Source: Lophium mytilinum (Eukaryota > Ascomycota > Dothideomycetes > Mytilinidiales > Mytilinidiaceae). From it: 42,714 bases of DNA. A model generated the notes under the pieces. The model saw only the letters and a list, made by a program, of their open reading frames with translations, ran no database searches and was not told the DNA's origin. Each line of letters begins with the position of its first letter. Position 1 is the stretch's first letter. The stretch lies in contig MU004192.1 in assembly GCA_010093605.1 (NCBI GenBank), positions 1,467,920 to 1,510,633 of the forward strand, in the 5' to 3' direction. Below, one piece after another: positions 3,001 to 40,610 of this stretch. The position numbers and the translations under genes were made by a program.

Positions 3001-3230
3001 AATTTAGGTTATTTACTATACGCACTAGATGCGTAGAAGGCTTAAGAAACTAGTACCTACTATAGTTAGTTATAGAGTTATCTTAGAAGACTATACTAGT
3101 TACGCTTAATAGTAGAGGTTAAATATAGTAAATAATTAGATTAGTTAGTTTATTTATAAATAGGTAGTATATAGAAAATAGATAGTTTATAGATTTTTAT
3201 TCTATAATACTAAGTATATATATAGACTTA

Positions 3231-3364
3231 CTATTATTAATACTAAGCTTTCTAGGCGTTAGTCTCTATATAGTAATAGTAATTAAATAGTAATACTAGG
3301 CGCGCGCACACGCTATTATTAATACTAAGCTTTCCGGGCGTTAGTCTCTATATAGTAATAGTAA
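3231..3364. repeat. 52-base direct repeat, copies differing by transitions only
   Basis: Copy 1 lies at 3231-3282 and copy 2 at 3313-3364, both starting CTATTATTAATACTAAGC. They differ at two adjacent-but-one positions (TCTAGG against TCCGGG), one T/C and one A/G, which are the changes RIP makes. The 30 bases between include a CG-rich tract (GGCGCGCGCACACGC, about 3299-3312). The repeat may be a remnant of element ends or a local duplication. Confidence 0.8.
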
Positions 3365-3649
3365 GATAGATAAAAAAGAAAGTTATAGAGCTATTAAAGT
3401 AATTAATAAATTAGTAGAAACTTTCTAGAGTACTACTACTACTTTTTTATTATAGAGGCTTATTATAGAGCGTCTACTATAGTTATAAAGTCTATTACCT
3501 AATATCGCGTATAATAGTTAGATTACTTTATTAGAGGCCTATAGTACTACTAATAGAATACTATATTAATATAGTCTTTATTAGGGGTCTATAATACTAC
3601 TAATAGTTACTATTTAAATATAGGTATACTAAAGCTTATTATAAGAGCG

Positions 3650-4445
3650 CACTCTATTATAGAAAATTTCTAGGAGTGCTTCCGTTACTTCTAGAAGCTA
3701 GAAGGGTATTTATCTTATATTAGGGCTTAAGGTTAGAATATTAGAATTATTAAATTAAATAGTATTAATATTAATAAAAGATAAATATAAGAAAGAAAGA
3801 GGTTTCTAGAATAGATATTATAATAATCTAAAGGGTAGAGTAACGTTTACCTATTCTATAGAGCCTCTATTATATAACCTCTAGTTATATATTATACGTA
3901 ATTATATAGCTATAATAGTATAATATTAACTACTTAAGGCTATACTTTACTAAGGTACTATATATAATAATTTAGGGCTATTTTACTAGTAATAAAAAGA
4001 GGCCTCTTATTATCTAGAATAAGTAGGTATATAGAAATATTAACTCTAAGAGCTTTCTTAAGTATATCTATTTAATACTATTTATCTTTTAGCGCTAGTT
4101 TAATAATATATACGCCTATAATTTATTAGAAGTAATAATAGATAGTATTCTACTATACTAATTAAAGCGCTTAAAGGCCTAATTTAAAGCTAATAATATA
4201 CTAATAATATTATAGCTAGTAAGTAGCCCTAATCTAAACTCTATTAAAAATATCTAGAAGCTTCTTAAGAAATAGATTAATACTTAAGCTATATAGCCTT
4301 AAACTTATAAATAAATAGCTAAGATAGCTTAGAAGAAATAGATAAAGATTATAGAGAAAGAGCTTAAGAAGCTTATTAAATCTATATCTAAGAGAATCTA
4401 GGCTATAATTACTATACGCGGCGGGCCTATAAAGTAGTAAATATA
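3650..4445 (+). pseudogene. Tc1/mariner-type transposase relic
   Basis: On the + strand a degraded frame resembles the C-terminal half of a Tc1/mariner (IS630-type) DDE transposase. Readable blocks are GYFTSNKKRPLII (about 3975-4015), a motif matching the family's SPNLNPIENIW block (here SPNLNSIKNI, about 4218-4250), and a tail ending RGGPIK before stops near 4440. The stops fall where Gln or Trp is expected, consistent with RIP. The N-terminal DNA-binding half is too decayed to read, and I found no convincing inverted repeats, so the element boundaries are unknown. It is an inactive remnant. Confidence 0.7.
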
Positions 4446-4812
4446 TATTCTATATAGCTTTAATTTATACTTAGAATAGATAGATTTAGATAGAATTTAG
4501 TAGAGATATACTTATTAATTTAGAGAGAATTCTAGTAGTTTATATTTATTTATACGCTTATTTATATACTTATTTATATACTTAATACCTAGCTAGCCTA
4601 TAGTAATATATAATAGTTATTTCTATAGAGCTTTATAATCTAATATCTAATATTAGAAGGGGTATACTAAGAAGTAGAGGATTCTTATACTAAACTATAT
4701 ATAGCTCCCCTATTTATTAGCTATAGAATTATACGCTAAGCTACCGAACGCATATAGGTGCTGTAGAGAGAGACGCGACGGCAATTAAGAGTTAGAATAA
4801 TTAAGTAGAATA

Positions 4813-6884
4813 TAGTAAAACCTAAGTATAGTAATATACTTAGTTAGTAGAGGTTATATTACTATATAGAGGGCATTACTATATTTAAGTTTATTAGTAA
4901 TCTACCTAGTAAATTATAATTAGTTAATAATATCTTATATTCTTGTATGTAAAGCTAAACTATAAGTATCTAACCGCCGGAAATAGTTAGAAATTAAGGT
5001 TTATATAGAGAATTAAATTTTCCTTCCTCTTAGAAGTTATTTATAATAATAGAGAGAGGAAATTAGTACTAATTTACTTAATTTCTGCTGCTCCTTATAT
5101 AGCCTAAGTGTTGCTAAGGCATTAATTACATTCTAAAGCTTTATAGTTAGATTCTCTACTACTACCTTAGTATCTAACTCTTTATCTTCTAGCCTAGAAT
5201 ATAGGCTAGCTATAAAGGTAATAATATTCTCTAGGGCCTTCTAGATCTCCTCTCTATCTAGGTAAATAAAATTTAATATTTCTATATATTACTAGATCCT
5301 TTCTACTATTTCTAAGGTATTTAGCGCCTTCTATATATTATCTAATAGCGGGGGGTTTATATAGTTCTTTAGACGGTGTATAGGGCCCTCTCTACTACTA
5401 AAAATAGTAGATTTAATATAGTAATTTAATATAGTAGTAGCCTTAACCTAATTCTATATATTAATAGCCTATTAAATTGCCTATAATATATAGATTTCCT
5501 TAAGAGAATCTTATTTTTCTATAGTTAGATTAACTATAAAGTGCAGCTAGGAACACTAATAATAGGCCTTAAAATTATAAATAATGCCCTAATCTATAGG
5601 CTAATAGACTAACGTGTAATTAAAGGGTAAAAATACTATCTTAGTATTCTTTAATATATTATTATTATTTACTATTTCTATAGCACTATAGTGTAAGCTA
5701 AAGCCGTCTAGAATAAGTAGTACCTTTCTTCTAGTTATTCTCTTATTAAACTATGCTAGGTATTTAAGTATAATACTTCTAGTTATCTATACCTTTTTAT
5801 TATACTTCTAGATAAAGTCTATCCCTCTTATATTTACTAATTTGTAGCTAAAATACTATAGATTTTTAGCTAATCTAATAATCTAGAGAGGGAGCTTATT
5901 ACTACTACTACTATTTAAGTAATTTATAATAGTAATACATGCTTTCTATTTCTTTAAACTAGGTAGTTACTTAGTAGCTAAGGTAATATTAGGTGTAGCC
6001 TTCTAAAAGAGACTATATTTATCTATATTATATATGTTATCTAGGTAATAGAGTTCTACTTTATTATATACTAGCTGCGTCTTTTTCTTAGTATTCTTAA
6101 TTTAAATAGATCTAGCTTCTCTATACTGCTTTCTCTTTTGCACGCTATTTCTTATCTTCTAGCCGTCTAGCTAGCTATTAGAAAAGGAGGGTATAGGTAT
6201 ATAATTTAATGCCGGAATAGATAGCTAGAGACTCTAAGTAGCCTCTTTTAGTAGGTCTCTAGTAATTAGAATGCGTGCAGCCTGCATATATTAATGCCAT
6301 TTAAATAGGGCCTTATCTAAAAGAGGGTGCTTGCCGGCCCTTCTTCTTTCTCTTCTAGCGTGTCTATTTTATAGCCTTATTCCATCTAGATACTTATATT
6401 TTTTACTAAGGTAGTAGAAGATTAAGGACTATCTAATAGTGCGTTAAAATCTATTAGAAGCCTAGGTAGCAAGGTGGTTTTAGTGTAATTCTAGGTATTT
6501 AGTAGTATAGTTATAAATAGCCTTACGCTTAAGGTTTAAGATACTATAGTAACGCTATTAGTCTAGATTCTTAGCCTTAGGCATTATAGAATTAAGATTT
6601 AGGTGTAAAAACAATAGAAATTAATAGCGTTTTAATAGATATATAACGTTATTTAGATAGAGGATATAAAAAGCTATATAGCCGGCGCGGAAAAACCGCC
6701 TCCGGATGCCCTTAAAATAGCGGTAAGCCTTCTTAGTTAGAGTAATATTAGTAAGCGGGGCCTTGTAATACTCTACTAAGCAGGATATTACTAATTCTTA
6801 TATAAATTTATACGGTTAGCTAAATTATATTACTCTACAGGGTATATTACTATAACCTCGTATTACTATACTTAGGTTTTACTG
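4813..6884 (-). mobile_element. Fot1/pogo-type DNA transposon, complete ends, RIP-damaged
   Basis: The left end reads TAGTAAAACCTAAGTATAGT from 4813. The right end, reverse-complemented from 6884, reads CAGTAAAACCTAAGTATAGT. The inverted repeats match over about 24 bases apart from one C to T change at the outermost base, then continue in a diverged form. Each end is flanked by TA (4811-4812 and 6885-6886), the target duplication of the Tc1/mariner/pogo superfamily. The 2,072-base length suits a Fot1-like element. The interior still holds some CpA and TpG, so it is less mutated than the block to its left and probably younger. Normal-composition DNA starts directly beyond 6886. Confidence 0.88.
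5090..6584 (-). pseudogene. Fot1/pogo-like transposase, RIP nonsense mutations
   Basis: The minus strand reads from an ATG at 6584 (MPKAKNLD, then stops). Three acidic catalytic blocks of the pogo DDE domain are legible: YNIDKYSLF (about 6006-6033), LILDGFSLHYSAI (about 5675-5715) and a PID-GIIYNFK block (about 5565-5610). About 37 residues separate the second and third Asp. Stops lie at positions where Gln or Trp is expected, such as LF*KATP and the codons flanking PID. It would have encoded the cut-and-paste transposase of the surrounding element, but many nonsense changes make it non-functional. The 3' limit is approximate. Confidence 0.85.
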
Positions 6885-6886
6885 TA

Positions 6887-8544
6887 TTAGGTGCAGCCCC
6901 GGTGCTTGGGTCAGGACAGGGAAACCAAGCAACCTGTCGCGAATATCAGTGCTTCTAGTATCTTAATGTGTTTGCAACTGCTCTTGTAAGTCGAGCCTTT
7001 TGTTGAGATATGGCAAGACGGCCCACTAATCCCTTTGAGCGCGTGTGGTGATGGCTAGCGTGATGCGCATCCCTTACCGCGTCACGTTACTTTCCTCAGA
7101 ACCCCTTACAAAGGTATATTGGCCTTCCTAGATGAATAATATACCAGAGTTAGTCCCAACATTCCATCAGCACTTATGTAGTCTTAACACTCACTAGCTT
7201 GTATAGTACCAGCTGATAGGTGATGGTGTGTGCACATCTCATTGGTTGAGCGATACGCAGTGGCTTTGGACCCATATTGGTGAAGCTCTGTCATGCGGTC
7301 GCGACAAAGGTGAGCATATGACGTCGTAAGTGTCGGATTCTTGAGCTCCATCTCGTGTTCTGCTGTGCTTGTCGTCTTCGTTACTGACCGAAAATGCGCT
7401 CAGAGATGTCGAGCGCAGTAGATATGGCTTTTCCAGTGACGATGAGCAAGAGGTCTCACCACCTGCGCCTACTCCTACAGAGGCGGAACACTTTAAATAC
7501 TTATATTTCTCAAGATACGGTTGGTCTACAGCACATTAAGCTACAAATATTTATTTTAGCCCATGGTTTCTATCTTCCTTATCGAGCCGAACGGTAACTT
7601 GTTTCTTAATGTTCGCAACGACAACGGGAGGAAGCCAAATATGGGAATTCCTCATTATCTAAACGGAGGTTGTCATAAACAGAAGGTTCGCCTGTCCAGT
7701 TCAAAATAGCGGGCAATCTTTAGCGTTACTGGTAATAAGCTACATAGGATCCGTCTGACCTCGGTTCGGTAGCCTCGTTTTTAGTTAAGAAATGAAGGTC
7801 ATGTTGCAGTGCCTGCATCGAAACCGCAAAACTATCAACCGGCGCGGTGATTGTTGAAAACAGGCCATAGATTGGGTTGACCTACCTTTGTAAAATACTT
7901 AGGGACCAAAATGATAGACTTTACCAGCAGCTGCTGCAAGTAATGCGGGAATCACATTCTCTTACAGGGAGTGCGGGGTTCTGAACAGGGTATACAGATC
8001 AGCAAATCTCCTGTCACCAGGTGATCCTTCTGGAGCTACCACACGTGCGGGGTCCCGCCGGATGCTGGTGGTCCATATGCACGAGCATTGAGCGAACGGA
8101 TCCGACGCTGAAACTTGTGTATCCGTTGCCGAACAGTGCAATATTACGCTCTTTCATGAATTCGAGGATTAGGTACTATAATCTAAACTCCAACATCGCT
8201 GTTGTCTGACTGGAAGTCGCCTAGCTCATGTAATTATCCCCGGGTCCCGTTGAGTCCGTTCGGGCAGACCCGCAGATCATGTACTTTTGTAGCCATTCTG
8301 GAGCTATGACCAGATAAATTTCCAGTTTCAACAGCTCCGCAAGGAGAAGAAACATTCTGACCTCCGGCTCCGGACCATTGGAAGAACCGAATGATGCTGA
8401 GGAAGAGTGCACCAATTCTGTACTAGCTTCGAAGGTTGAGCGCTATGTCACGAAGAAAATCTTGAACTATATAAATGAAAAGGAAAGATTTGTTCTTATT
8501 ATACCGACGCCTGTCACTTCCTATACAACAGTTTGATTGAGATA
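6887..8544. other. Gene-free spacer next to the RIP block
   Basis: Composition returns to normal abruptly at the pogo edge. The only open frames are short (under 70 codons) and match nothing I know. No tRNA-like or repeat structure was seen. The last 100 bases contain the promoter of the following gene. Confidence 0.6.
8468..8476 (+). promoter_or_regulatory. TATA-like box
   Basis: TATATAAAT lies 69 bases upstream of the ATG at 8545, the only strong TATA-like element near that start. It supports the first-exon model for the secreted lipocalin-fold protein. Confidence 0.5.
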
Positions 8545-16700: not shown

Positions 16701-18707
16701 CGCTTTCTCAGCCATAGTGTGCCGATTGTCCCTTTCAGCAAACCCGAGCCGAGTGACACAGACGCTAGACGTTATAGCACGAATCCTTTCATTCCCGGAG
16801 CTTTGGAGCCTTCTTCATCTTACTCCCAAGAGCTAGCCACCACTCCACCAGAAGCGCTAGCTACGGCTGATCGTATCTTCGAGCACACTCGCAATGAGGC
16901 TAAGAAGCCCTCTATACCCACCCTCTGGAAGTCTGATTCGTTGTCTGGCATCTCCTTCCCGCAGCCCGAAGAGCCAGTTGAGCGAACGTCTCCCGGAAGA
17001 AATTCGTTAGAAGACTTTGTCGACGAAGACAATGAGCGGGATTGGATCACGATCAACGAGCGACGAGATGTTCATAGAGATTCTGGTGACAGTATCGCTG
17101 ATTATTCAAGTCGAGACCCCAGCTACGACGAAGATCGGCAAGTCGTTGTGCATCCCGGAGTACCATCCATTCCTCATGAGTACAAGAAGACCCAACTGGA
17201 GTCGGGCGAGACCGTGTTGCTCCCTGTTTATGGAGGAACGCGACTGCCCACAATGAATGCGCTTCCCAGGAACTTTTCGGCACCATACAGACACCCAAGC
17301 CCACTGGATGACCACGAACATCCATTCGACTCTTCTCCGCCTACCATGAACACTGGAAGAGCACGAGAAAGCTATGGACCATTCGCACTCGACGACCTCA
17401 ACCTCAGCCCCACTCCGAAGGCAGGCGAACTCAGCGATGACAGCGATGACAGCGAGGTACCTCGCCCACCAGCACGAATGGGAAAGCGTCGCGACGATGT
17501 AGGGAACGGTGGCGTGCAATACGAATTCACTGAAAAGGAGATGTTAGATGCTGGGCCCAATGACGATATCATCTATGGTAGTCAAGCTCTCCCCTCGTCG
17601 AGCCACTACGGTGATAGTAGGTCTTTCTCGTCAGGTCGCGCCGAACCTGCGACTATGAGCACGCTTGCACAAGAGCGCGATAATTCTTTCGCGAAACTGA
17701 CCATTCTCGGTCCCAAAGGCAACTTGACTGGAACGCCTCTTGGTACCGGCATGCGAGAGGTTGGCAGCAGCCTAGCCGACTCTAGTAGTCCTGGAGCCGC
17801 ATTCTATTCGACTCCCATTCGCGACCACAGGACCAATATCTTAGGATCTTCGCCTTTCTCCGGAATGACTTCCCCTCGCGCATATGCGTCCAGCCCGTAC
17901 TCTCCTTTTCCAACACCTGATCGGAATTCTCGGAACTCCAGCTTGGCTCGAGGTGCTAGCTATTCGTCGAACCATGTCCCGGTATCTCCCACGGAGTCCG
18001 TGTACTCTACCTACGAAAATCAGCCTAGGTTTCATGTGAAGCCGTTGAATCTCGGGCAGGATCCGAACGAAATCGAGCTCCAGGATATCAGCCGCAACGG
18101 CTCGATTGGTCGCGGGAATTACACACCAGCCCATGATGGATCGAAGTCCAAGCGGTCTTCAGTGGCTAATCAGACGGGATTACGCGAGCTTCGCCTTGCC
18201 AGCACTCCAGTCCGACTAGCCAGTGCTCCGCTCCAGGCTGTCACTGTCTTGCCACGCCTCGCTCCCGATACGGCTACAATCTCCTCGAATAGGTCTAGGA
18301 TGACCCGAATGAGCGACCTTATGCACATTAGGGCCTTTGCTACCTCCCAGCAACCTCTCCGCGAGTACCGACAGCCTGTTGCGCCTCTTGCACAGGAACA
18401 TAGCCCGCACTTGCTAGCTAACCCGCATCTCGTCACACCAGTGGTCATCAAGCGCCTCAACCGGGTCTCGTGGATCTATTTCGCTGCATGCTGCGTCGTT
18501 CCGCTGGCTCTTTTCCTATACCCCTACGGCTTTGGCGACCTCCTCGTCACCCTCCACAGCAAGTGCTTCTACCAGGAGTCCGGAGATGTGTTTCGGAAGG
18601 CTGGATATAGGCAGAAGGCTATTGCTGTCTGGGCTGGACCTGTTTGGACCATCGCCCAGATTCTGATCATTGTGTTCGTCACTTTGGCCTGCTACAAGGT
18701 CATCTGA
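13785..18707 (+). CDS. Large Ser/Pro-rich disordered protein with two C-terminal membrane segments; microexon-rich 5' end
   Basis: Seven exons are inferred: 13785-14109, 14222-14251, 14361-14393, 14500-14532, 14642-14674, 14755-14796 and 14899-18707. All introns are phase 1 with GT/AG ends (GTGAGT, GTTAGT or GTTTGT donors), and the frame stays open throughout, giving 1,434 residues. The start ATG (GCAGCCATGGCG) has good context. Microexons 2-6 encode short repeats of the kind A-S-P-A-S-A-N-Y-S-Q. The long last exon encodes a Ser/Pro/Arg-rich, largely disordered region with acidic patches (for example around SDDSDDSE). Two hydrophobic helices lie at about 1357-1377 and 1405-1431, separated by a Cys-containing loop, and the chain ends CYKVI. 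I infer a membrane-anchored protein with a large cytoplasmic tail. I recognise no enzyme domain and assign no function. The microexon model rests on splice signals, not transcripts. Confidence 0.75.
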
Positions 18708-18906
18708 GGAACCCCAGGTACCTCTTTGGACTTGGACTATGGTGATTTTTCTACTAATTCTGACTTTACGGTGATTTTGAATGGCGTTGGAATGGGGTTT
18801 TGCATAGGCAGGCTGCCTCGACAGAGGATTAACTAGGTAGTTGATGAATAGCCGAGCCAATAGGATGCAAATCAAAATAAAACTAGTATATCTTATACTC
18901 TCTCTT
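18708..18906 (+). other. 3' flank of the membrane-protein gene, partly duplicated downstream
   Basis: This stretch, probably 3' UTR, shares order and short identical blocks with 19215-19379. Shared features are GACTTTACGGTGATTTTG against GACCTTACTTCGCGATGATTTTG, GGCAGGCTG, and a final tract leading into CTTGCCACxGTCTGAGG. The second copy interrupts the repeat array between its second and third cores. Confidence 0.5.
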
Positions 18907-21125
18907 GCCACCGTCTGAGGTGCCTTGTGAAGCTTCTATAGACCCGGAAACCGTGCTTTTGGAATATCGGTAAGCTCGCGAGGCCACCTCAGACGGTGCT
19001 GAAAAGGTGTATACAAAACGGTCGTATACGGTTGAGGTGTTTGTTTTTCGTTCCTTTTGCCACTATCTGAGGTGCCTTATAATGTTTTTGTAGAGCTGGA
19101 AACCGTACTTTTGGAATATCGGTAAGTTCGCTAGGCCACCTCAGCCGGTGCTGAAAAGGTGTATACAGACCGGTCGTACGCAGTTGAGATGTTTGTTTGT
19201 TGCTCTTATTTCTCACTTTGACCTTACTTCGCGATGATTTTGGTTGGAGTTTGCTTGGGCAGGCTGGATTCAATGGGGTTCATCATGCGCCAACCTATGG
19301 AAGATTAAAGGGCGATTAGTCAATGGATGGTAAGTGAGATGCTAGTGGTATAAAGTTCGTGTATGTTGTACCCTTTCTTGCCACTGTCTGAGGTGGCTCA
19401 GGATGCTTCTACAAATCCGGAAATCATGCTTTGTAGCAGTCAGAAAGCTTGTCAGGCCACCTCAGACGGTGTCGGAAAGGTGCATATAAACCGGAGACGC
19501 TATGTCGGATGTGAGTGTTTTGAGAAATGATCGTACGCAGTTGAGATTATACAATCCTCTTTTCCTCATTTTTACAATTCCCTACCGCTGTCTGAGGTGG
19601 CTCAAGATGCTTCTACGAAACTGAAAGTCGTGCGTTTATATTGTCCGTTAAATCGCTAGGCCACCTCAGACGGCGCTGGAAAGGTGTACGTACACACACC
19701 GGAGACGCTATTTTGGGTGTATGTTTGAAAGATGATTGCACATAGTTAAGATTGTACACGCCTCTGATCTTTATCTTTACAAACCTTTGACGCTGTCTGA
19801 GGTGGCTCAGGATGCTTCCACGACTTTGAAAATCATGCTTTTCAACGGTCAGGAAGCCTGCCAGGCCACCTCAGACGGTGTTAGGAAGGTATACACAGAC
19901 CGAGGATGCTATATCGCGATGTGCAGATCGTCTTATACAGTTGAGATTGCACGCTTCTCTCTTCCCTATCCTTGCAAACCTTTGACACTGTCTGAGGTGG
20001 TTCAGGGTGCTTCTACGAATCCGAAAATCTTGCTTTTCAATGGTTAGGAAGCTCGTCAAGCCACCTCAGACGGTGTTGGAAAGGTGTATGCAGGCCGAGG
20101 AGGTTATCCTCGAGACGTGCAGGTGTGAATGGGCGAGAGGTGAACGGTTGAAATTGCACACTTCTATCTTCCTATCCTTGTAATCTTTTGCCACTGTCTG
20201 AAGTGGCTTAGGGTGCTTCTTCGAATCCAGATCTAATGCTTTTGGACGGTCAGGCAGCTGGCCAGGCCAACTCAGGCAGCGCCGAACGATTGTACGTGCG
20301 ACTGGAATTGCTAATACGCAACGTCGCAAACATCAAAATGGTCTATGGCTTTACACACTCGATGCTAAACCTTCCTCCTTTCTCTCTTTCATCTCATCGA
20401 TAACCAAGATACGTACACTGTTCTGACACCGTTTGTGGTGCCTCAAAGAGCTTTCAATTTTATAAAAGAGGCTGGTTTGAACAGCCAGTAAGCTTGCCAG
20501 GACACCTCAGACAGCACTGAAAGGATGTACACGGACTGTAGATGCTGGAATACTACCTCTCAAGTATCACTGCTTACGAGATTTACACATCTAAGATTAC
20601 GCGCTTCTCTCTTCTCTCGCCTTCTACAATCAATGTCTGTACCCTCTTTTGACACCGTTTGTGGTGCCCTGAGGAGCTGTCAAGAACCTAAAGAAGATGG
20701 TTTTGGACAACTGTTCGGCTCCCAAGGCCACCTCAGACAGCGTTGAACATGTGTACACGGGGTGGAAGTGCTAATATACAAGGCCTATAAACTAAATATC
20801 GCACGCCTCTCTCGCCTCGCCTCTTCCTCCTTTTTCATCTAACGTACGTACATACGTTTGATACCGTTTGGGGTACCTCAAAGAGTATTCATGAACCTTG
20901 ATAGTCTCACTTGGAACAAGCGGTCGGCTCGCAAGGCCACCTCAGGCAGCGCTGAACATGTGTGCACGCGTTGGAAGTGCGCACTTATCCCATCTCTCTT
21001 CCTTGTCTGCAATCGAATATGTACCGTTGTTTGAAACCGCCTGTAGCGCCTCGAACATCATCCGAGGACCCGAAAAAAGGTCGATTTGAACGGTCAGGAA
21101 GCCCGTTGGGCCACCTCAGACAGTG
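18907..21125. repeat. Tandem array of eleven foldback-arm cores of 92-93 bases
   Basis: Cores lie at 18907-18998, 19059-19150, 19380-19471, 19584-19675, 19789-19880, 19984-20075, 20190-20281, 20425-20516, 20651-20742, 20860-20951 and 21033-21125. Each begins with a left arm (consensus GCCACTGTCTGAGGTGGC) and ends with a right arm (GGCCACCTCAGACGGTG) that is nearly its reverse complement. Ten cores are exactly 92 bases and the last is 93. The inner part is also related between copies (GGATGCTTCTACGAATCC and GGTCAGGAAGCTCG-like blocks). Spacers are 60-229 bases, mostly 103-143, and share AAAGGTGTATAC and GTTGAGATTGCACGC-like segments, so the basic period is about 205 bases. In cores 8-11 the left arm drifts to GTTTGTGGTG while the right arm stays, so pairing weakens. 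No coding frame runs through it and RIP is not evident. Family unknown. Confidence 0.9.
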
Positions 21126-21239
21126 CCGAAGATGTGTACGCAGACTAGAATGATACAGTTACGACATCCGAGTACGGCTGTTCGAAAGATCAATGTAAAC
21201 GTATATGATTGAAATTGCTGCTAGAAAAGCAGCAAACTA

Positions 21240-22960
21240 TTGCGATGTCTAGGCTTGTAGATCAGAACGCACTTTTTCAAGTCATCGATTCATCTAAGGA
21301 CTCTCATGCATATATAACATCTGAAGTTTGCTGATGTCATTCCCAAAGGCCACAGACCGGAATCTCTCTTTTCTAGACGTTTTCAACCTTCTGAGCGCTC
21401 TCATGCCTATCCAACATTTGAATTCTCAGGATGTCATTTCCGGAGCCTGCAGATTATGATGACTCTTTTCTTCACGCATTCGGTCGTCTGAGGACTCTCA
21501 TGCCTATTCAACACCCAAGGTCTTAGAATGTCATTTCCACGGGCGACAGATTAGATTGCATCTTTCTGGGCATGTCTAATCATCTGAGGACTCTCGCGCC
21601 CAATCAACGCCCAACTCCTTAGGATGTCAATTCCGGGAGCTACAGAGTGAAGTCATCTTCTTGAGAACCTAATCCTCTCATGTAGATGATGCAGCATCAC
21701 TATCTACAGGTATAAGGCTACCGTTCCGACGACGCAAATAACCTCCTGTAGCCTCTCAAGCCTACTCATCTTTTCAGATCTTAGATGACATTTCTGCGTG
21801 CTGGAGATTGGAGACTGCTCTTTGAAGACCCGATATCCCGTCTCTATAGCGCTGCATCATCATCTGAAGGCGTAAGATTGTCGTTTTGAAACCGTAGGCA
21901 ACGGTCCCTGGCCTTCCAGGCCTATTCATCTTCCGAAATCGTAAATGCTATTTTCGCGGAGGTCCAAATCGGAACTCCTCTTTCTAGGGGTGGTTCGCGA
22001 TCTGAAGGCTCTTTCATCTATCCACCTTTTGAATTGGCATGATAGTATTCTTGGGGGCTGCAGATTAGAAGCTATTATTTGATGGCCTATTTCTCATCTC
22101 CATGGCGCTGTATCTTCATTGGGACGTGCAGCACTCTTATTTGGATAACATAGGTAATCATCCATGGTCTTCTAGGCCTATTCATATTACGAAAATTTGA
22201 TTGATATCTCCACAAAGGTGTATATTGTAACACTGCTTTTCTGGGCATTTTTAGCCATCTGAGGACTGTTCGACTTATTGGTCTGTCGAAACCTCATTAT
22301 GTCATTCTTTCAAGACTGTCCATCGGACGTACGCTAATTACATCACGAAACCCTATCTCTTTGGCCGAGCAACACGATACAGAGGCGTCATTTCGTTGTT
22401 CTACCAACGTATAAAACCATTTGAAGAGTTTGTGGCCTTTCTAGATTCAAATTTGCATAATGTCACGTTTTCAAGCCTGTGAATCTACCTAGTCTCCGTC
22501 TGCTACATATAGATACTCTATCTCTCTTTCTAGGTATTACGTTTTGCAGGCGTTCATTAGTTGCTTTAATAGTTTGAAAAAGTATTTGAAGACTCTCTAG
22601 ACCAGTTCGTTCTTGATTACACACGATGTTATATTCATGAGCCTGTGGATTAGGGCTCCTTCCCGTGTATCGCTATCTCCTATAGATTTGGTCGAGCAAC
22701 ACGAGTTATATTAGACCGCTCGAAGCTTTGAAAACATATAGGAAAGTCTGAAGATCTGGCCTATGTAAGTTCGAATATGTATCATGTCATGCTCTTTTAC
22801 CCGTGATCTAGGTTTCTGTCTTTCACATGACAACATTATATTTCTTTCACCGAGCGAAACAAGTTGAACATGAGCCATCCTTTTTTTTGATAACGTACCG
22901 AACATCTGAAGACTCTCTGGTCCATCAGGTTTGAAATCCAGACGAAGTCATACTCTCAAA
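21240..22960. repeat. Second tandem repeat family, period about 97 bases at first
   Basis: Units are anchored by CTGAGGACTCTCATGCCT-like sequence at about 21294, 21391, 21488 and 21594 (spacings 97, 97, 106). Each is followed by a GGATGTCATTTCCGGGAGC-like block and a TCTTTCTGGGCAT-like block. Further right the units become irregular and longer; anchors can still be seen near 22002, 22259, 22740 and 22895. No gene is present. Its CATCTGAGGA anchor recalls the TCTGAGGTG arm of the preceding array, but I cannot show common origin. Confidence 0.75.
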
Positions 22961-23252
22961 CCGTTGAATTGCGTCTCTGACCCTTGCAAACCAATGTGCC
23001 AATATCATGTCCTTTCAGGTCAGCATGTTCTACCTTTCTGGCACTGTTAGAGGTCCTCTATCGACCTAAAAATATTCCAGACGGAAGCCAGGATTCTTTC
23101 CCTTCGAATCTGACCTCGCAGTTCCAAGCCGTTTTGATTACTTCTCACCAACGTCTAGAGGCCTTTGCTACCTTGAAAATCTCCCGCAAGAATGTGAAAA
23201 CTTTCCCTTTTAGATCTTAACGCGCAAGTTTACGCCGTTTCAGTCACTGTTT

Positions 23253-23510
23253 GGCGCCGTTTGTGGTGGTCTAGCAACATCTTATCAACCAGGATAGGAT
23301 ATAAGAAATCTCACTCTACGATTCAAGCCTATGGAGAAACGGTGACTCGACACACTCAGTCTTTGCTCGTGTCTTGAATCTGATAGATTGCATTGCGGCT
23401 CTGAAGCTTTGATCATGCCGTTTGTGGTGCTCCAGTATACCAATAGAAACGCGGAGCAACGGGTTTCAGATTTGGGGGGTGTAGACTTTTCTATCGCTGC
23501 CTGAGGTGGC
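23253..23510. repeat. Decayed copies of the 92-base core
   Basis: A left arm GGCGCCGTTTGTGGTGGT starts at 23253, and exactly 92 bases on the segment ends ACGGTG (23344) where a right arm should end, though CACCTCAG is lost. Further left arms without clear right arms begin at about 23414 (GCCGTTTGTGGTGC) and 23493 (GCTGCCTGAGGTGGC). They lie within 480 bases of the utp11 start, in its likely promoter region. Confidence 0.6.
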
Positions 23511-23610
23511 CCAGCAAGCTTTCTGCGACGCGAAACTGCTCGTATCCTAGGTGCAATATTTACAGCGTCCTAAAACACCGAACTGAGCATTTCGGGGACT
23601 CTGCAATCTG

Positions 23611-23615
23611 ATTGG
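23611..23615 (-). promoter_or_regulatory. CCAAT box upstream of utp11
   Basis: ATTGG on the + strand (CCAAT on the minus strand), about 111 bases before the utp11 ATG. CCAAT boxes at this distance are common in fungal housekeeping promoters; use here is inferred. Confidence 0.35.
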
Positions 23616-23725
23616 TCGACATTTTCCGAAATCTTGGCGGCGAAATTTATGTCTTGGCCGCTGCGAACTTCATCCCACCACCAACCTTGCTCTCCGCAGT
23701 ACTCAACCCACCCTCGCAGTTCGCC

Positions 23726-24613
23726 ATGTCGTCCATGAGAAATGCGGTCCAGCGCCGCAACCATAGAGAGCGCGCTCAGCCTGAGGAGCGGGCGAAATGG
23801 GGTCTTCTCGAGAAGTCAAAAGGTAGGATCCTGCAGGGAACATACTCAATCTCAAATGCAGCAGAATACTAACGCTCTCCAGACTACAAACTACGTGCTC
23901 AGGATTTCCGTACGAAGAAGCAAAAACTCAGAGCCCTGAAGTCCAAAGCTGCGGACCGCAACCCGGACGAATTCTCCTTCAAGATGCTGAGCTCGAAAGC
24001 CGATAACGGGCGCAAGCTCGGCGATCGGGGCAATAAAGCGTTGAGCATGGATGTGGTCAAGCTGCTCAAGACTCAAGATATTGGATATGTGCGGACAATG
24101 CTGCAGGCGACGCGGAAGGAGAGGGAGAAGCTGGAGCAGGAGGTTGTGATGGGCAAGACTGGCGTTAGGACGTTCAATGAGGCCGAGGCGGGGAAGAAGG
24201 GCAGCCATATGGTGTTTGTGGAGAGTGCCGAGGAGCAGAAGGCCTTTAAGCCTGAAGAGTGGTTTGGGACATCTGCAGAGGGGCTGGATAAGGCATGGAA
24301 CCGGCCGCGGAACTCCGCGGTGGATCAAGAGCAGGGAGACGGCGACGAACTTGGGACCACTTCTACGGCGAAACTGCCCAAAAAACAGCAAGAAATCGAG
24401 GCCGCCAAACGCAAGGAAGAACGCTCGTTGAAGAAGAAGCGTGAGGGGGCTCAACTGTCACGCATGTCCCGGCTGGAAGCTTTGAAAGCCAGAGAGCGAG
24501 ATCTGAAGAGCGTCGAGGATGAGCTGGAGACACAAAGAGCCAAGATGGCTGGCACCATTGGCGGTGTCAACAAAAACGGGGTCAAATATAAGGTCAGGGA
24601 ACGAAAACGCTGA
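23726..24613 (+). CDS. utp11: U3 snoRNA-associated protein Utp11
   Basis: Exons 23726-23822 and 23883-24613 are joined by a 60-base intron (GTAGG donor, TACTAAC branch site, CCAG acceptor), giving 275 residues. The N-terminus MSSMRNAVQRRNHRERAQPE is the family signature. It is followed by LLEKSK/DYKLRAQDF across the splice, then KSKAADRNPDEFSFKML and NKALSMDVVKLLKTQDIGYV, all diagnostic of Utp11. The C-terminal half is charged and probably coiled coil (KKQQEIEAAKRKEERSLKKK), ending in a basic tail (YKVRERKR). Utp11 is a nucleolar part of the small-subunit processome, needed for early 18S rRNA processing. It converges with the SDR gene, with 181 bases between the two stops. The length fits the family. 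Confidence 0.95.
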
Positions 24614-28271: not shown

Positions 28272-29537
28272 TTAATCTCGCATCTCTTCATATTCCGGGA
28301 GGTCCCATCCCTTTACATTCTCCTTGAGCATCCACTTCCCAACATTCACCTTGAAGAGAGAGGCCACTCCCAGGATACAGTGCATGATGGCAATACCGAA
28401 TGCCGTCGATGGGATCATGTCTGGCCCTGTGTCTTCCAAGACCCCTTTCTGTACTTGTTTCATGAATGGCTGGAATTTTTGTTCGTAAGCCATGAGCGCA
28501 GTCGCAAGGCCGTCCTTTGCACCGTCAACCCTAGGGCCCTCTCTACTAGGGCGCCCACAGTGTCTCCCTATCTCCCCTGCTAATATATAAGCACCCACAA
28601 TAGCAGAGGTCGTACCCATTCCTGTATTTGCCGACGGGCAATAGGCGGCGTCTCCAACGAGTGCCACGCGGCCCCGGTACCAAGACTCCAGCTTGACAAG
28701 GCCCAAGCGCTCACAGTAGAAGTCGTTGGCGTCCTTCATAGACTTTATGATCTCGTCTGTTTGCCATCCGGCACCTTGGAAGATCTCTGACAAAGCTTCC
28801 TTTTCCTCCCTGACATCACCCCGACGAGCGTTTTTGAGTCGCTCCGAATCCGTCGTGCCGCCAAGATATACCTGAATCTCGTTTGGGCTGTGTCTTCGAG
28901 TCATCACTCCCCGTCTTCCAGGAGCCATGTATTGTGTGGCAATGTATCCTTCCCCTTCCTGTATCGGCCGCGGAATGGTGAAGTATGCAACGCAGACACC
29001 ATTAAGCGGATAAAATCCGTCGGCAGTGTCAGATCCCAGCATCATCTTGCGCGTGCGCGACCCCTGGCCGTCGGCGCCGACCAAGAGATCAAAGCAGTTG
29101 GTGCTCCCGTCCGTGAACCGAACCTCAACGGAGCCATCTTTGTCGTCGAAGCTCTCGATGGACGTCCCAAAGATATAGGCCGTCCGATCCTTGGTGGCGT
29201 CGTGTATAATGCGACAGAGATCCCCTCTCATAATCTCATATTCGGTAGTGAAGTTCTGCGGTCCTTTGCCAGTTGTGTTCGCGGGGAAGTAAGCCCGCCG
29301 GCTGCCCGACTTGTCGACTATCTGCAGGCCCTGCTCGGGGGCTAACTTGGAGTGATAAGCCTCTTCAAGGCCCATACGCTTCATGACCTCGATTCCGTGC
29401 CCACGTAGGTCTATCTGGAGCCCCGTTGCTCGCAGGCTAGGGAATCGCTCGGCTACGGTGACGTCGTGTCCTAGTTTCGAGAGCCAGAAGGCGAGGGCAT
29501 TGCCAGCAATACCCCCACCGTTGATGAGGACCTTCAT
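28272..29537 (-). CDS. FAD-dependent monooxygenase (PHBH/TetX/UbiH-like)
   Basis: A single exon of 421 residues on the minus strand, starting at the ATG at 29537. The dinucleotide-binding motif GGGIAG is at residues 7-12 directly after the start, with an acidic residue after strand 2 (VAERF), so the N-terminus is complete. The DG motif lies at 156-157 (LLVGADGQGSRTR). The GD motif lies at 295-296 (VALVGDAAYCPSANTGMGTTSA), which contacts the FAD ribityl chain. This is the class A flavoprotein hydroxylase layout, close to TetX-type and fungal secondary-metabolite monooxygenases. It hydroxylates or epoxidises an unidentified small molecule using NAD(P)H and oxygen. No signal peptide or membrane helix is evident. 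The Zn2Cys6 regulator directly upstream on the same strand may control it. Confidence 0.92.
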   Translation of the reverse strand: MKVLINGGGIAGNALAFWLSKLGHDVTVAERFPSLRATGLQIDLRGHGIEVMKRMGLEEAYHSKLAPEQGLQIVDKSGSRRAYFPANTTGKGPQNFTTEYEIMRGDLCRIIHDATKDRTAYIFGTSIESFDDKDGSVEVRFTDGSTNCFDLLVGADGQGSRTRKMMLGSDTADGFYPLNGVCVAYFTIPRPIQEGEGYIATQYMAPGRRGVMTRRHSPNEIQVYLGGTTDSERLKNARRGDVREEKEALSEIFQGAGWQTDEIIKSMKDANDFYCERLGLVKLESWYRGRVALVGDAAYCPSANTGMGTTSAIVGAYILAGEIGRHCGRPSREGPRVDGAKDGLATALMAYEQKFQPFMKQVQKGVLEDTGPDMIPSTAFGIAIMHCILGVASLFKVNVGKWMLKENVKGWDLPEYEEMRD

Positions 29538-30050
29538 TCGTGCTGGAACCTATTTGATGCCGTGCGCACTCGGAATGGAATGAAAAGAAGATATCAGAGG
29601 CTTTGGATCGATCACAAGGGTACTGAGGGTGTTACCTAGCGAGATCTTTAGGTATAAGGCAATTTTCGAGTGTTCCGACTGATGGACGAAAACAGGCAGT
29701 GCTAATACCTGGGGAATGTTAAGTAGTGGTCGTAGATCATCTCCTCGGTATTTTGTCTCAGCTGCGACGAATTATCTCCGGGAGGCCGTCACATTCCCCG
29801 TCTCGGTCGTAAGAATGAGGTAGGCCGCTAAATGACCGAAGCAGCTCTAGCTACTGCATCCCGCTTGTAGACATGTGTTTCTTTGCTGCCATTGCTTCAA
29901 GTCCTTCGGTGCAGCGTTAGAGCTCTGGAATTTTCCGTTTTGAAAAATCGGTGAACTGGCCGGGCAACCTCAGACGATGGCTGGAAGACTGGAAATGTAA
30001 GCCAACCATCTCTTGAGTTTTCTGAACACATACCCAAGTATCGCGGTATA
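29538..30050. other. Monooxygenase promoter region with a solo 92-base repeat
   Basis: This 513-base spacer lies between two minus-strand genes. It holds the monooxygenase promoter and the 3' flank of the regulator. The only structure recognised is the dispersed repeat core at 29888-29979. Confidence 0.55.
29888..29979. repeat. Dispersed single copy of the 92-base core
   Basis: The right arm GGCAACCTCAGACGATG (29963-29979) differs from the array consensus GGCCACCTCAGACGGTG at two positions. The inner blocks TTAGAGCTCTGGAA and TTTTGAAAAATCGGTGAACT match core 2 of the array (TAGAGCTGGAA, TTTTGGAATATCGGTAAGTT). Counting 92 bases back gives a decayed left arm, GCCATTGCTTCAAGTCCT, with 11 of 18 matches to the consensus. 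It is about 9 kb from the main array and has no tandem neighbour. Confidence 0.75.
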
Positions 30051-32261
30051 CTAATAAGAAAAGCTTTCATCTGGAAAGAAAAATTCCATGTCTAAGTCAA
30101 ACTCATCATAGCCCTCTTGCCCGCTTCCAAGACCTATTGATGGGAGGCCCGTATCGATAGCAGCACCAACTCGTGTCTGTAGTAGATTATGGCATAGCTC
30201 AAGGCTATTGGTTGCGCTCTGTGCAATATGGAGTTCGGACGAAGCACCTGCTTCTATCGCTTCGGTCTGTGCCAAAATCATAGTCAGAAACATATAACTT
30301 TTGATGTTAGTTTCACCTTGCCGAATACGCTCCAAAGACAATGAAGCCATGTCTTTTACGGCTTGCTTGAGAACCTGTCTGTACTGGGAGTTGTGACACA
30401 ATGTCCCGTCCAGGCACTGCGACTCGGCTTGGGCAATAAGCTCAAGACTGATAACTGTGGTTGCCAGCCTGATTCCCTCTCTGAAAATGCCTCCATCGAC
30501 AGCCATCAGGTGGGAGAAGCTTTCGTCTTGCTCGGGCGAGATGATGGCCATGGCAGCATCCAGGCTTGTGGTGAGCGAATAGGAGAATAGTGGGTTCGTC
30601 CGCGCTTTGCTAGCAAACGGGCAGTGCAGAGGGATCAAGAACCGACGCACTAGATAATGAAGCATGTTACGGTGAAAAGGCGTCACGCCATAGCCCTCGT
30701 TCGCTTTCATGAAGCTACTACACGCCCGATATGCGTCGGTTATCTCTGAGCTCAGGGCTAGGACATCCATGTAAGAAAGTTCGGAGTGCAAGCCGTTCAG
30801 AAGGTGGAGGATCCGGAGGCGGGTTGGCAGTGACTCGAATAGAGTAAGCTGGATCGAAGTTGCGGTGTAGGTGCTCTTGGGGTGAGGCAGGAGTGTCGTG
30901 GTCGAATCGTCCATCTCTTCGTCGTTGATGTTGCAAGGCGCCCCCGTATCAAACTCTTCGAAAGAGATCCTGGGCGGCATTGCTGAGTCTAGAGACGACT
31001 GTACAACCATCTCGAGTATAGTTACCCAAAGCCTTCTACGGAGCTCGGCTTGCAACACAGGCATAGCTGGGAGATATTTTGGATCACGATGTAAGCCTAT
31101 CTGCATACCTCTGTGTATGAGCGAACCCATTGACATCCAGACCAGGTCGCCGCCAATTGAGAAGATTTGTCGCGCCAACACCGTTAGGCAGTGGATTTGT
31201 AGCCCGGTGATGTCTAGGCGGTCCTTTTTCAACGGTCCGGAAAGCCATGTCTGAGCAGCATATATCCATCTGCGAACCATGTCACGAAAACTAGCATCCG
31301 TATCTCCATGATTGGATAGACTAGACCCTATCCCAATGACGAGAAGAATCTTAAGGCGTAAGTCGATCGTAACACTTTCTGGATGTGTCCAATATCTCTC
31401 GTACTGGGTCCGGAAGGTAGGGCCGTGGAGTATCCGATGTATCGACTCAAACGATTGGAAATACAGGGTTACCATGATGTCTGCCACTTCGCGGGACGGG
31501 GGTGTGAGGCCGAAGCCAGCACATGAGAGACACTTGCTGGGCCGCCCTATCTTGATCATCCTTGCGAGATTCTTGCACTTCTGAAGTAGATCACCAATTT
31601 GGATAACTAGGGCTCTGGTTTCAGCGCCTTGGAATAAGGTCCCGCTGCCGTCGCCGCCAGCCTCAGCATAGCAGGCAATGATGAGTGCGAATTCTTGAGC
31701 CATGCCCATCCAGTGGCTCCATGTGAAGATCCTTGTCTTGTTGAGGATTATCTGCGAGTCTTGCAGGCCGGACTGACGCGTGAGTATGTTTCGACCAGTC
31801 TCGGCCAGTCCGTGAATGGGGCTTGAAGCCGAAGATTGCTCGAGGATCTGTACCCGCTGCAAAAGATCCCGGAGATTTGGTCCTTCGTCTTGGGCTCGGT
31901 TTCGAATGCCCTGCTTGAGACCATAGGTATCTGGGGTGTCATTCTGCCTAGCTGCCGCTGCCGCTGTTGCTGTGGCCTGGAGCTCAGGTGGAAAATCACC
32001 ATGCACTGTGGTCGGTCTGTTGGTGCTGTTTCGTTGGACCCGGGCTACAGACGAAGTAGCGTAGATCGACGGGCTCGGAGACGAGCCCAATGAGCCGCCT
32101 GGCTGGACGACGGGCTTATTGCTACGAATAGTGTAGGCACATTGCGTTTCAGTAGAGACACAATGGGCGCATGGGTCGCTTCTGTCACACTTGATCTTGC
32201 GGCGCCGGCATTCAATGCATGACAGGGCCGGTCTTCGTCGTCGGCGAAGTTCTCGGTCCAT
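30051..32261 (-). CDS. Zn2Cys6 transcription factor with fungal-specific regulatory domain
   Basis: One open frame of 736 residues on the minus strand, starting at 32261. The binuclear zinc cluster has C15, C18, C25, C31, C34 and C41 (CIECRRRKIKCDRSDPCAHC, then C41) with spacing C-x2-C-x6-C-x5-C-x2-C-x6-C, preceded by a basic stretch. A Gln/Ala-rich linker follows. The middle-homology (fungal_trans) region then contains YFQSFESIHRILHGPTF, GMQIGLHRDP and RRRLWVTILEMV. The tail is acidic (EEGYDEFDLDMEFFFPDESF-like, ending SFSY), a plausible activation domain. It is a nuclear DNA-binding regulator. It lies just upstream of the FAD monooxygenase on the same strand, a common arrangement for pathway-specific regulators. 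No intron is needed to keep the frame. Confidence 0.93.
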   Translation of the reverse strand: MDRELRRRRRPALSCIECRRRKIKCDRSDPCAHCVSTETQCAYTIRSNKPVVQPGGSLGSSPSPSIYATSSVARVQRNSTNRPTTVHGDFPPELQATATAAAAARQNDTPDTYGLKQGIRNRAQDEGPNLRDLLQRVQILEQSSASSPIHGLAETGRNILTRQSGLQDSQIILNKTRIFTWSHWMGMAQEFALIIACYAEAGGDGSGTLFQGAETRALVIQIGDLLQKCKNLARMIKIGRPSKCLSCAGFGLTPPSREVADIMVTLYFQSFESIHRILHGPTFRTQYERYWTHPESVTIDLRLKILLVIGIGSSLSNHGDTDASFRDMVRRWIYAAQTWLSGPLKKDRLDITGLQIHCLTVLARQIFSIGGDLVWMSMGSLIHRGMQIGLHRDPKYLPAMPVLQAELRRRLWVTILEMVVQSSLDSAMPPRISFEEFDTGAPCNINDEEMDDSTTTLLPHPKSTYTATSIQLTLFESLPTRLRILHLLNGLHSELSYMDVLALSSEITDAYRACSSFMKANEGYGVTPFHRNMLHYLVRRFLIPLHCPFASKARTNPLFSYSLTTSLDAAMAIISPEQDESFSHLMAVDGGIFREGIRLATTVISLELIAQAESQCLDGTLCHNSQYRQVLKQAVKDMASLSLERIRQGETNIKSYMFLTMILAQTEAIEAGASSELHIAQSATNSLELCHNLLQTRVGAAIDTGLPSIGLGSGQEGYDEFDLDMEFFFPDESFSY

Positions 32262-36602: not shown

Positions 36603-37130
36603 CATTTTCTGGATTTTCAGGGCTGTTAGATAGGTCTGCCATGGTACCTTGGGGTCTTCTTGGATACCGCTTTCTCCACACGCTAGACGTGTGACATAGG
36701 CTAGGGGCACTCCGCTTTTTGAAGCACTTCACCGCGATATTTACGGACGTCTTCTCACGTCACCACCAATACCCAAGTAGTTGTCGTAGCGCTTGATAGT
36801 GAGAAATGCAATTTCGTTCATGTACCATAGTAAACGAGAGCACAGTAAGGTTCTTAAAATAGTAGTCTAAGAATTAACTGTAGAAGCTTATAATTTAGAA
36901 CAGCATTAGGTATAAACTATATATAGAGTAGATTAAAGAGTCCCTTAAATATAATCTATTTAATTTAGCCCTATAGTAAGCTTAAAGTATTAGATACTAC
37001 TAAGTAGAAGCCTATATAGTATTAAAGGTATAGAGTTAGTATAAGAATATATAGGTAGATAGATTAATAGAAATTATATTACTTAAGTTCTATTCTATAC
37101 TAATAGTAATAGAGTTATATATATATACTA
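36603..37130. other. HET 3' flank and entry into the right AT-rich block
   Basis: Normal composition continues to about 36850, after which CpA and TpG nearly vanish. From 37021 the sequence is one half of a repeat whose undisturbed copy is at 40636-40801. No gene. Confidence 0.7.
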
Positions 37131-37418
37131 TTTAATATAGGTATAAGTATTTCTATACCCTTCTATTATATATTAATACCCCCTAATATTAGTAGATATA
37201 TACTCTTTCCACCCCTATTATTTTACCACCTTCTAATTAGCTTAGATAGGTGCTCCGGAGCCTTTAATTTACTTACTTAATTTCCTTACTAAATTTAAAT
37301 ACTCTCTCTAAATCTAGTAGCGTATAAACCTTATTCTCTACCTCTATACTATACTCTCTTTACCTCTTACTATAGCTCTATAGCCTCTATAGCTAGCCTA
37401 TTATTCTATAGCTAAGGA

Positions 37419-39480: not shown

Positions 39481-39755
39481 TTCTATCTAGCTTCTATTAC
39501 TTAGAGTACTTCTTAGTCGGCCGCTATACTAGCTATTATAGAATTTAATAATTTACTTACTAATCCGCCCGAGTTTAAGTATATAGTTATAGCTAGGCCC
39601 CCCCCTATTACTATACCTACGTCCGCACCTACTACTGCATCTACTGCTGCACCTAAGAAGCGTAGCCAGCCGGCTAGTATAAAGAATAAAGTACCTAGAA
39701 AAAAGATAGTACTATAGAAAGGGGCTATATAGCGTTATAATAGCGCTTATTTTAA

Positions 39756-39799
39756 GCCTTAGCTAGCTTCTTAGCCTTAGCTAGCTTCTTAGCCTTAGG
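39756..39799 (+). repeat. Short tandem repeat, unit AGCCTTAGCTAGCTTCTT
   Basis: About 2.5 copies of an 18-base unit lie in the 3' part of the MULE. Confidence 0.7.
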
Positions 39800-40070
39800 C
39801 AGCGCCTGCGCTACTTTCTATTAAGGAGCTCTAACGTTAAATAATATTATATAATTAGCATATAGAGGCGTTAATAGATTAGAATAGCTAAGGAGGCGCG
39901 GCGGCGATATAGGGGGGCTAGGTTTAATGCGGAGAGGCTATAATAAAGTAAGGATTTAACTATTTTAGTATACTTATAGGCATATAGGTATATAGGTAGT
40001 AATATAACGGCCTATATATACTATAGAAAATGGAAAGTATATATAGTAAAATAGGTATACTATATAGCCT

Positions 40071-40190
40071 TACTATAACTATAGCCTTATATATAGCCTT
40101 ACGTACTCTATAGCCTTATATAAGGCCTTATATAAGGCTAGCCTATATATATAGCCTTATCTATAGCCTTAATAGGCTACTAGAAATAGT
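40071..40190. repeat. Low-complexity TATAGCCTTA repeat
   Basis: Many imperfect copies of TATAGCCTTA and its complement TAAGGCTATA, inside the right part of the MULE. Short local inverted repeats result (CCTTATATAAGG). Confidence 0.65.
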
Positions 40191-40489
40191 AAGAATATAT
40201 AATAAAATAGTAAGGCTATATAGCCTTTCTATTTTAAGCGCCGGAGTAGTAATCTAAGCCCTCTAGACTAATTAGAAGATTAGACGGGAGAAGGGTATAT
40301 ATCTACTAATGTCGGGGGGTGTTAATATATAATAGAAGGGTGTAGAAATACTCGTACCCTTTAATATCTTATAAAATATTTCTCTAGTATTCTTATAATA
40401 TTATCTAATATTTATTATAGAGCGCTACTAAATATATACTCTATATTTACTTAGTATATACCCCTTTTCTACTCTATATATACCCTTCT

Positions 40490-40610
40490 TACGTCTAATC
40501 TTCTAATTAGTCTAGAGGGCTTGGAGGAAGCTCTAATTTGCTTGCTTACGTTTCTTACTAATTCTAAATACTCTCTCTAAGTGCGGCGTAGCTATAAGTA
40601 ATTATAACCT
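40490..40610 (+). repeat. Fragment of a MULE end outside the element
   Basis: CGTCTAATCTTCTAATTAGT and the following bases match the inner part of the MULE inverted repeats. TTACTAATTCTAAATACTCT resembles 37289-37310 in direct orientation. It lies outside the target duplication, so it belongs to another, truncated element copy. Confidence 0.6.

What the first reader, a model, noticed from the sequence alone, without database searches (positions are those of the whole stretch)
18907..21125. Tandem array whose 92-base core resists indels while spacers do not
Eleven cores with near-complementary arms sit in a row, ten of exactly 92 bases and one of 93, although their sequences have diverged and spacers range from 60 to 229 bases. 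Neutral tandem repeats should gain and lose bases in core and spacer alike. The pattern suggests the core length is constrained (a folded RNA, paired protein sites at fixed distance) or that the core is copied as a unit. I know no described fungal element of this form.
Basis: partly seen in the sequence, partly recalled or inferred. Interest (0 to 1): 0.85.

Follow-up and report, generated by a model that had tools for sequence, protein, structure and literature searches.

The report
Fixed-length palindromic modules of fungal repeat
The array is one of several stretches in this fungal genome built from a dispersed repeat whose 90-base module carries two mirror-image boxes usually 74 bases apart, which looks like a paired protein-binding site in a transposon-derived repeat rather than an RNA gene.

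Summary
In detail: eleven modules, arm-to-arm distance 74 in ten and 75 in one. In the ten equal-length units, cores have 0 indels against 217 substitutions; spacers 18 against 341 (p 2.5e-4).

The locus is not unique. The right arm has 544 near-matches in this 43-Mb genome against 32 for a control. The module is the palindrome inside a TIR-bounded, MITE-like repeat of about 0.4 kb with apparent 5-bp target duplications, and recurs in other tandem arrays whose spacers do not resemble these. Dispersed copies show the same pattern: 65 substitutions per distinct indel in the core, 14 in the adjacent spacer (p 5e-6). Searches with a free gap peak at distance 74 (49 of 81 sites), with a minor 84-85 class.

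A folded RNA is not supported: halves pair no better with their own partner than with swapped ones.

Most likely: an old satellite-like expansion of a MITE module whose length is set by two inverted DNA boxes about seven helical turns apart. The binding protein is unknown, phasing only suggestive, and neutral decay beside indel-prone spacers is not excluded.

The parts
18907..19000 (+). module 1 (left box 18909-18924, right box 18983-18998)
19059..19152 (+). module 2
19380..19473 (+). module 3
19584..19677 (+). module 4
19789..19882 (+). module 5, best hairpin of the eleven (fold z -8.7)
19984..20077 (+). module 6
20190..20283 (+). module 7
20425..20518 (+). module 8, left box of the CACCGTTTGTGGTG type
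20651..20744 (+). module 9
20860..20953 (+). module 10
21033..21127 (+). module 11 (one base longer)
18758..18906 (+). upstream stretch that by eye resembles the extra ~120 bases of the spacer between modules 2 and 3
   Evidence: read; not tested separately
23040..23579 (.). decayed module traces: 23040-23081 +, 23418-23460 +, 23495-23579 -
29890..29979 (+). isolated single module of the same length, between the genes at 28272-29537 and 30051-32261

Best explanation
The array is an old, satellite-like tandem expansion (start-to-start steps 195-235 bases in seven cases, and 152, 173 and 321) of the palindromic module of a dispersed, TIR-bounded, non-coding repeat family (MITE-like). Each module is a pair of inverted 16-base boxes (GCCACCTCAGACGGTG and its imperfect reverse complement) held at 74 bases. 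Shown: dispersal, TIRs with apparent 5-bp target duplications, recurrence in other arrays, and indel depletion in the module relative to neighbouring spacer in this array and in dispersed copies. Inferred: the length is fixed because both boxes are contacted together, on one face of the DNA, by a protein complex (a transposase or a host factor) that needs about seven helical turns between them, so substitutions between the boxes are tolerated but most length changes are not. Arrays then form by ordinary local duplication and lose the TIRs.
For: Dispersed family: 544 versus 32 control sites; 49 versus 1; 42 matches of one whole element, one of them the query itself, the others at 68-87% identity (40 of 146 candidates scored). 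TIRs and boundaries; 5-bp duplications exact in 3 and 4 of 5 in 3 of the 9 copies with both ends. Fixed distance: 49 of 81 sites of free-gap searches at exactly 74 and 8 at 73 (reversed-pattern controls 8 and 13 sites); arrays: window 10 of 11, L057 8 of 9 strong modules, L024 4 of 6 at 74. Indels: core 9 distinct / 587 substitutions against inter-module 39 / 548 (p 5e-6) and right end 11 / 141 (p 5e-4), in 37 of 50 loci that aligned. Middles of modules from different arrays are only 40-46% identical, arms 71-80%. Length classes about one turn apart: core module 72-74 and 84-85; the other module of the element 76-78 and 87-89. None of 51 anchored cores lies in an ORF of at least 150 aa; such ORFs cover 18% of those loci.
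Against: The 84-85 class shares one insertion, so phasing rests on two or three independent events; one-base-shorter modules (73) are fairly common (10 of 79 pairs), which strict phasing would not favour; one strong L057 module (1178-1273) is about 7 bases longer. No binding protein or transposase was identified. The array itself carries no recognisable TIR (best 17 of 28, shuffle maximum 19). By gapped identity spacers within arrays are not less alike than module middles (window 0.78 against 0.70, L024 0.72 against 0.66, L057 0.84 against 0.72). The spacers may simply be indel-prone, and no neutral baseline for this species was measured. Dispersed copies were chosen by an exact right arm. Module 1 of the element is not significantly different from the core (33 against 65 substitutions per indel, p 0.16).
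Confidence: 0.55

Rival explanations
1. Neutral decay of an old MITE-derived satellite. The module looks length-locked only because the spacers, rich in short palindromes and short repeats, suffer more slippage and deletion; nothing selects the module length today.
For: Inter-module indels are broad in size, 1 to 41 bases, and MITE bodies are expected to be non-functional. 65 substitutions per indel is not extreme in itself (a neutral ratio of about 33 in yeast mutation lines is recalled, from no call). Other diverged long-period arrays without this box occur (L070, L073). Within arrays spacers are as alike as module middles by gapped identity.
Against: The right end of the element is also indel-rich relative to the core (p 5e-4). 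The distance peak is sharp even among modules whose middles are only about 40-46% identical between arrays. Boxes are more conserved than middles in three arrays pooled (1.36 and 1.54 against 0.75 bits, 23 modules).
Confidence: 0.3
2. A structured hairpin RNA locus (milRNA-like or long-hairpin siRNA precursors): + strand transcripts fold into 90-nt hairpins of fixed length.
For: Copies 1 and 3-6 fold far better than shuffles (z -4.2 to -8.7) and copy 9 fairly well (z -3.7); in 8 of 11 copies the + strand z-score is better than that of the - strand.
Against: No compensatory maintenance in half-swap tests (lowest p 0.09, copies 1-7); copies 10 and 11 fold like random sequence (z -0.07 and -0.51); copies 8-11 changed the left arm without matching changes on the right; no Rfam match.
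Confidence: 0.07
3. The array is the primary, host-maintained structure (for example a binding platform that organises chromatin, in the manner of boxes shared by unrelated satellites), and the TIR elements are mobile fragments of it. Not exclusive of the best explanation's paired-site step.
For: The box occurs in arrays of very different unit length and sequence: 65, 66, 97, 119, about 151, about 195 and about 205 bases; spacers of the window array have no convincing match in loci L007-L067 (one 19-base hit, E 0.09); TIR ends lie about 220 or about 400 bases apart, which fits elements with one or two modules (by eye).
Against: The arrays examined were fetched because they carry the box; 2 of 2 long-period arrays in 99 kb of unselected DNA lack it. 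No functional data.
Confidence: 0.12

Closest known systems
MITE-derived tandem repeats / satellites (Xstir and miDNA4 in Xenopus), as reviewed in PMC12628747 (abstract start and passages seen)
   Same: Same internal sequence found in a TIR element and as tandem arrays without the ends; arrays thought to grow from internal sequence and then lose the TIRs.
   Different: Here the shared part is a palindromic module with a nearly constant distance between its boxes, found in arrays whose spacers are not alike; fungal, old and diverged rather than homogenised.
Fungal MITE families, e.g. two of thirteen in Mycosphaerella graminicola with 5-6 bp target duplications (PMC4522978, passages seen)
   Same: Short, TIR-bounded; apparent 5-bp target duplications.
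   Different: One or two ~90-base palindromic modules inside the element and further arrays without TIRs; no such module or fixed spacing was mentioned in the passages seen.
Satellites sharing a protein box, the CENP-B box type (recalled)
   Same: A short box kept in otherwise unlike tandem repeats.
   Different: Box sequence not compared; boxes come as inverted pairs 74 apart; no binding protein known.
En/Spm-type subterminal transposase-binding repeats (recalled)
   Same: Several copies of a short motif, in both orientations, inside a TIR element.
   Different: Here the pairs keep one main distance and also occur in long arrays outside the element.

Membership tests
MITE (dispersed relatives, not the array itself) | terminal inverted repeats | tested here: met
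   About 30-bp TIRs, 84% over 31 columns of the profile consensus; both ends found in 9 of 50 loci
MITE (dispersed relatives, not the array itself) | target site duplication of constant length | tested here: met
   5 bp: 3 exact, 3 with 4 of 5, the other 3 with 3, 2 and 0 of 5, of 9 copies
MITE (dispersed relatives, not the array itself) | short, non-coding, many copies | tested here: met
   392-424 bp in 9 copies; 0 of 51 cores in ORFs of 150 aa or more; 544 arm sites against 32 control
MITE (dispersed relatives, not the array itself) | autonomous partner with the same ends | not tested
   Only about 100 of 221 TIR sites were listed; no transposase search made
MITE (the window array itself) | TIRs at its ends | tested here: not met
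   Best TIR match 17 of 28 in 18601-23800, shuffle maximum 19
satellite / minisatellite array | tandem head-to-tail units | tested here: met
satellite / minisatellite array | recent homogenisation of units | tested here: not met
   Mean pairwise identity after gapped alignment: middle 0.70, spacer 0.78
pre-miRNA-like / structured RNA | pairing kept by compensatory change | tested here: not met
pre-miRNA-like / structured RNA | expressed, processed small RNA | not testable with these tools
   no RNA data
Helitron | no TIRs or target duplication, hairpin just before a 3' CTRR end | tested here: not met
   TIRs and apparent 5-bp duplications present, element ends CTAGCGTG
paired protein sites with helical phasing | permitted lengths differ by whole turns (10-11 bp) | tested here: inconclusive
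   Classes 72-74/84-85 and 76-78/87-89, but few independent events and ten 73s among 79 pairs

The most novel reading that the evidence does not exclude
A host or transposon protein complex binds hundreds of inverted box pairs across this genome and tolerates only whole-turn spacings (about 74 or 84 bp). Array formation has repeatedly been built around these pairs, giving a fungal paired-box satellite system with a length-locked module.
Probability: 0.2. Interest if true: 0.75.

Novelty: new variant of a known kind. Interest (0 to 1): 0.5.

Why it matters
TE-derived repeats are expected to gain and lose bases freely. Here a module mostly keeps its length while its interior diverges to 40-46% identity between arrays, in dispersed copies and in separate arrays alike. 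That separates spacing constraint from sequence constraint, points to a DNA-binding complex rather than an RNA, and gives a testable prediction (whole-turn changes tolerated, half-turn changes not).

Tried and rejected
Folded or small RNA: folds on both strands, RNAalifold, half-swap tests and Rfam; rejected for lack of covariation. A covariance model was built but not used, because this genome is not searched by models. tRNA genes: none found. The second tandem family at 21272-22930 (97-base unit) as decayed modules: not significant (12 to 161 of 200 shuffles as good). A TIR at the array's ends: none. An autonomous element with the same TIRs: among the roughly 100 of 221 TIR sites listed, inverted pairs looked at by eye are mostly 0.2-0.4 kb apart; one pair at C1:2084541-2086885 is 2.3 kb apart but fits two separate elements better, because inner motifs lie beside each end; inconclusive. 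Copying of the core alone inside this array: rejected, spacers are homologous between units. Literature: seven searches showed, in titles and abstract starts, no description of a fungal repeat of this form; two papers were seen in passages; the library is partial.

Full report
Observation. The window lies in a genome held as G000 (C12:1467920-1510633; 43.18 Mb, 24 contigs). That it is a fungus follows from its genes (Utp11, HET, Zn_clus and Fungal_trans domains). Between the 1239-aa ORF ending at 18707 (no Pfam match) and UTP11 (its ORF starts at 23984; the first exon seems to lie near 23.7 kb, by eye) lie eleven modules with arm-to-arm distance 74 (ten) or 75 (one) and spacers of 62-231 bases. 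Arm matches exceed shuffles by far (20 against 0.12, 18 of the 20 in the array). In an alignment of ten units the core has no gap against 217 substitutions, and the spacers have 18 distinct gap intervals against 341 substitutions (p 2.5e-4; module 11 left out). Gap intervals are treated as independent, which is generous; subsets of 4-5 units give p 0.03-0.16.

The module is a near full-length palindrome: a profile of the eleven cores matches its own reverse strand (best E 6e-13). The same profile found an isolated module in the window, 29890-29979 and of the same length, and a decayed one at 23495-23579.

Not a unique element. With at most two mismatches the right arm occurs 544 times in the genome, this window included, against 32 for the reversed control. 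Other 16-mers of the family gave 175 (control 8), 429 (control 16; this one lies on both arms of a palindrome, so copies can count twice) and 255 (control 22). I took 50 loci with an exact arm (30, 20). Of 51 anchors, 46 had a left arm with at least 9 of 13 matches, 36 of them at 74; the others lay at 73 (3), 76, 78, 80, 84 (2) and 85 (2). Five anchors had no such left arm.

The element. Sixteen copies align over about 0.4 kb with sharp ends: CACGC-type TIRs (84% over 31 columns) and target duplications of 5 bp, exact in 3 of 9 copies with both ends, 4 of 5 matching in 3, and 3, 2 and 0 of 5 in the others. Inside are two palindromes: module 1 (consensus positions about 52-160) and the core module (281-371). 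TIR sites also pair at about 220 bp, which suggests one-module elements (four pairs read by eye). Matches to one whole element are at most 87% identical apart from the query itself (40 of 146 candidates scored), so I infer that the family is old.

Length constraint outside the array. Of 50 loci, 37 aligned to the element profile at E up to 1e-10. Counted with shared events merged, the core without its right arm has 9 distinct indels for 587 substitutions. The stretch between the modules has 39 for 548 (p 5e-6), the right end 11 for 141 (p 5e-4), and module 1 has 11 for 363 (not different from the core, p 0.16). Substitution density is the same in core and inter-module stretch (0.215 and 0.218). 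The right arm was left out because the search fixed it. Only copies with an exact right arm were used.

Free-gap distance test. CTGAGGT or TTGAGGT, a gap of 52-82, then ACCTCAG gave 29 plus 52 distinct sites; reversed-pattern controls gave 8 (palindromic, counted once) and 13. Of the 81, 49 have distance 74, 8 have 73, 4 have 84, 1 has 85, and 19 are scattered (tallied by hand from the printed coordinates; six of the 49 are in this window, and one or two of the four at 84 may be chance). In one search, 37 of 49 sites are at 74, 6 at 73, and 6 at other lengths. Module 1: 9 of 15 sites have one length (distance 88), one has 78. In fetched loci the core module falls at 72-74 (67 of 79 pairs, ten of them at 73) and 84-85 (7), with five others; module 1 in 16 loci falls at 76-78 (8) and 87-89 (6), with 82 and 92 as outliers (which lists some pairs on both strands). 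The seven 84-85 copies aligned share a 10-base insertion at the centre, so they are probably one event.

Other arrays. L057 (C10) has nine strong modules: eight are at 74 (five by an independent arm scan; three taken at 74 and checked on the printed arms and the profile lengths), and one, 1178-1273, is about 7 bases longer. Three of its spacers measured 25-56 bases. L024 (C5) has six units of about 205: four at 74, one at 73, one with a base missing in the left box. Middles of modules from different arrays are 40-46% identical without gaps, arms 71-80% (window 10, L024 5, L057 8 modules). Spacers of the window array have no match in loci L007-L067 beyond one 19-base hit at E 0.09. Within arrays, gapped identity of spacers is not lower than that of middles. 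Some arrays carry a single box per unit (L060, L064, L011). In 99 kb of unselected DNA there were two long-period arrays, neither matched by the module profile, and one weak module hit elsewhere.

Not an RNA. Five of eleven copies fold very well on the + strand (z -4.2 to -8.7), but this follows from the palindrome. If pairing were selected, a copy's own halves should pair better than halves taken from other copies. They do not: window p 0.43, copies 1-7 p 0.09, copies 8-11 p 0.17, dispersed p 0.87 on the + strand, and 0.83, 0.12 (copies 1-7) and 0.69 on the - strand; simple pair counts agree for arms and whole modules (lowest fraction 0.22). Power is limited at n = 11, and the p of 0.09 is noted. 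Copies 8-11 changed the left arm without matching change on the right.

Mechanism. What is kept is the two boxes and their distance, rather than the pairing or most of the sequence between them. Two inverted protein sites contacted together explain this most simply; 74 bases is close to seven turns and 84-85 to eight. The frequent 73s, the one longer L057 module and the few independent length changes keep this at suggestive. The ordinary rival, neutral decay next to indel-prone spacers, cannot be excluded without a neutral baseline or orthologues, which I did not have here.

Relation to the known. A TIR element, arrays of its inner part, and mixtures of both are described for MITE-derived satellites (PMC12628747, passages seen), and fungal MITEs with 5-6 bp duplications exist (PMC4522978, passages seen). 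The length-locked paired-box module shared by arrays with unlike spacers is the part for which seven searches listed no precedent.

Noticed in passing
window 21272-22930: A second tandem family: four clear units of about 97 bases, then degenerate ones. Homology to the modules is not significant.
   Followed up: partly
window 29890-29979: A single module of the same length in the space between a FAD-binding monooxygenase-like gene and a Zn2Cys6 regulator gene.
   Followed up: partly
window 1-7000 and 37001-42000: Very AT-rich ends (22-34% G+C) around a gene-rich middle, as expected of RIP-affected blocks (RIP not tested).
   Followed up: no
L060 485-1108: A 66-base-unit array, about 9.5 copies, with one box per unit and no evident partner box.
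   Followed up: no
L070 6655-7452 and L073 5196-5720: Other diverged long-period arrays (109/219 and 227 bases) without this box; by eye each consensus has its own short palindrome (CACCACGGGTG; CCACGTGTGG).
   Followed up: no
G000 C1:2070917-2071134, C4:1164275-1164491, C5:245958-246184, C7:1504857-1505074: TIR pairs about 217-227 bases apart, suggesting one-module versions of the element.
   Followed up: no
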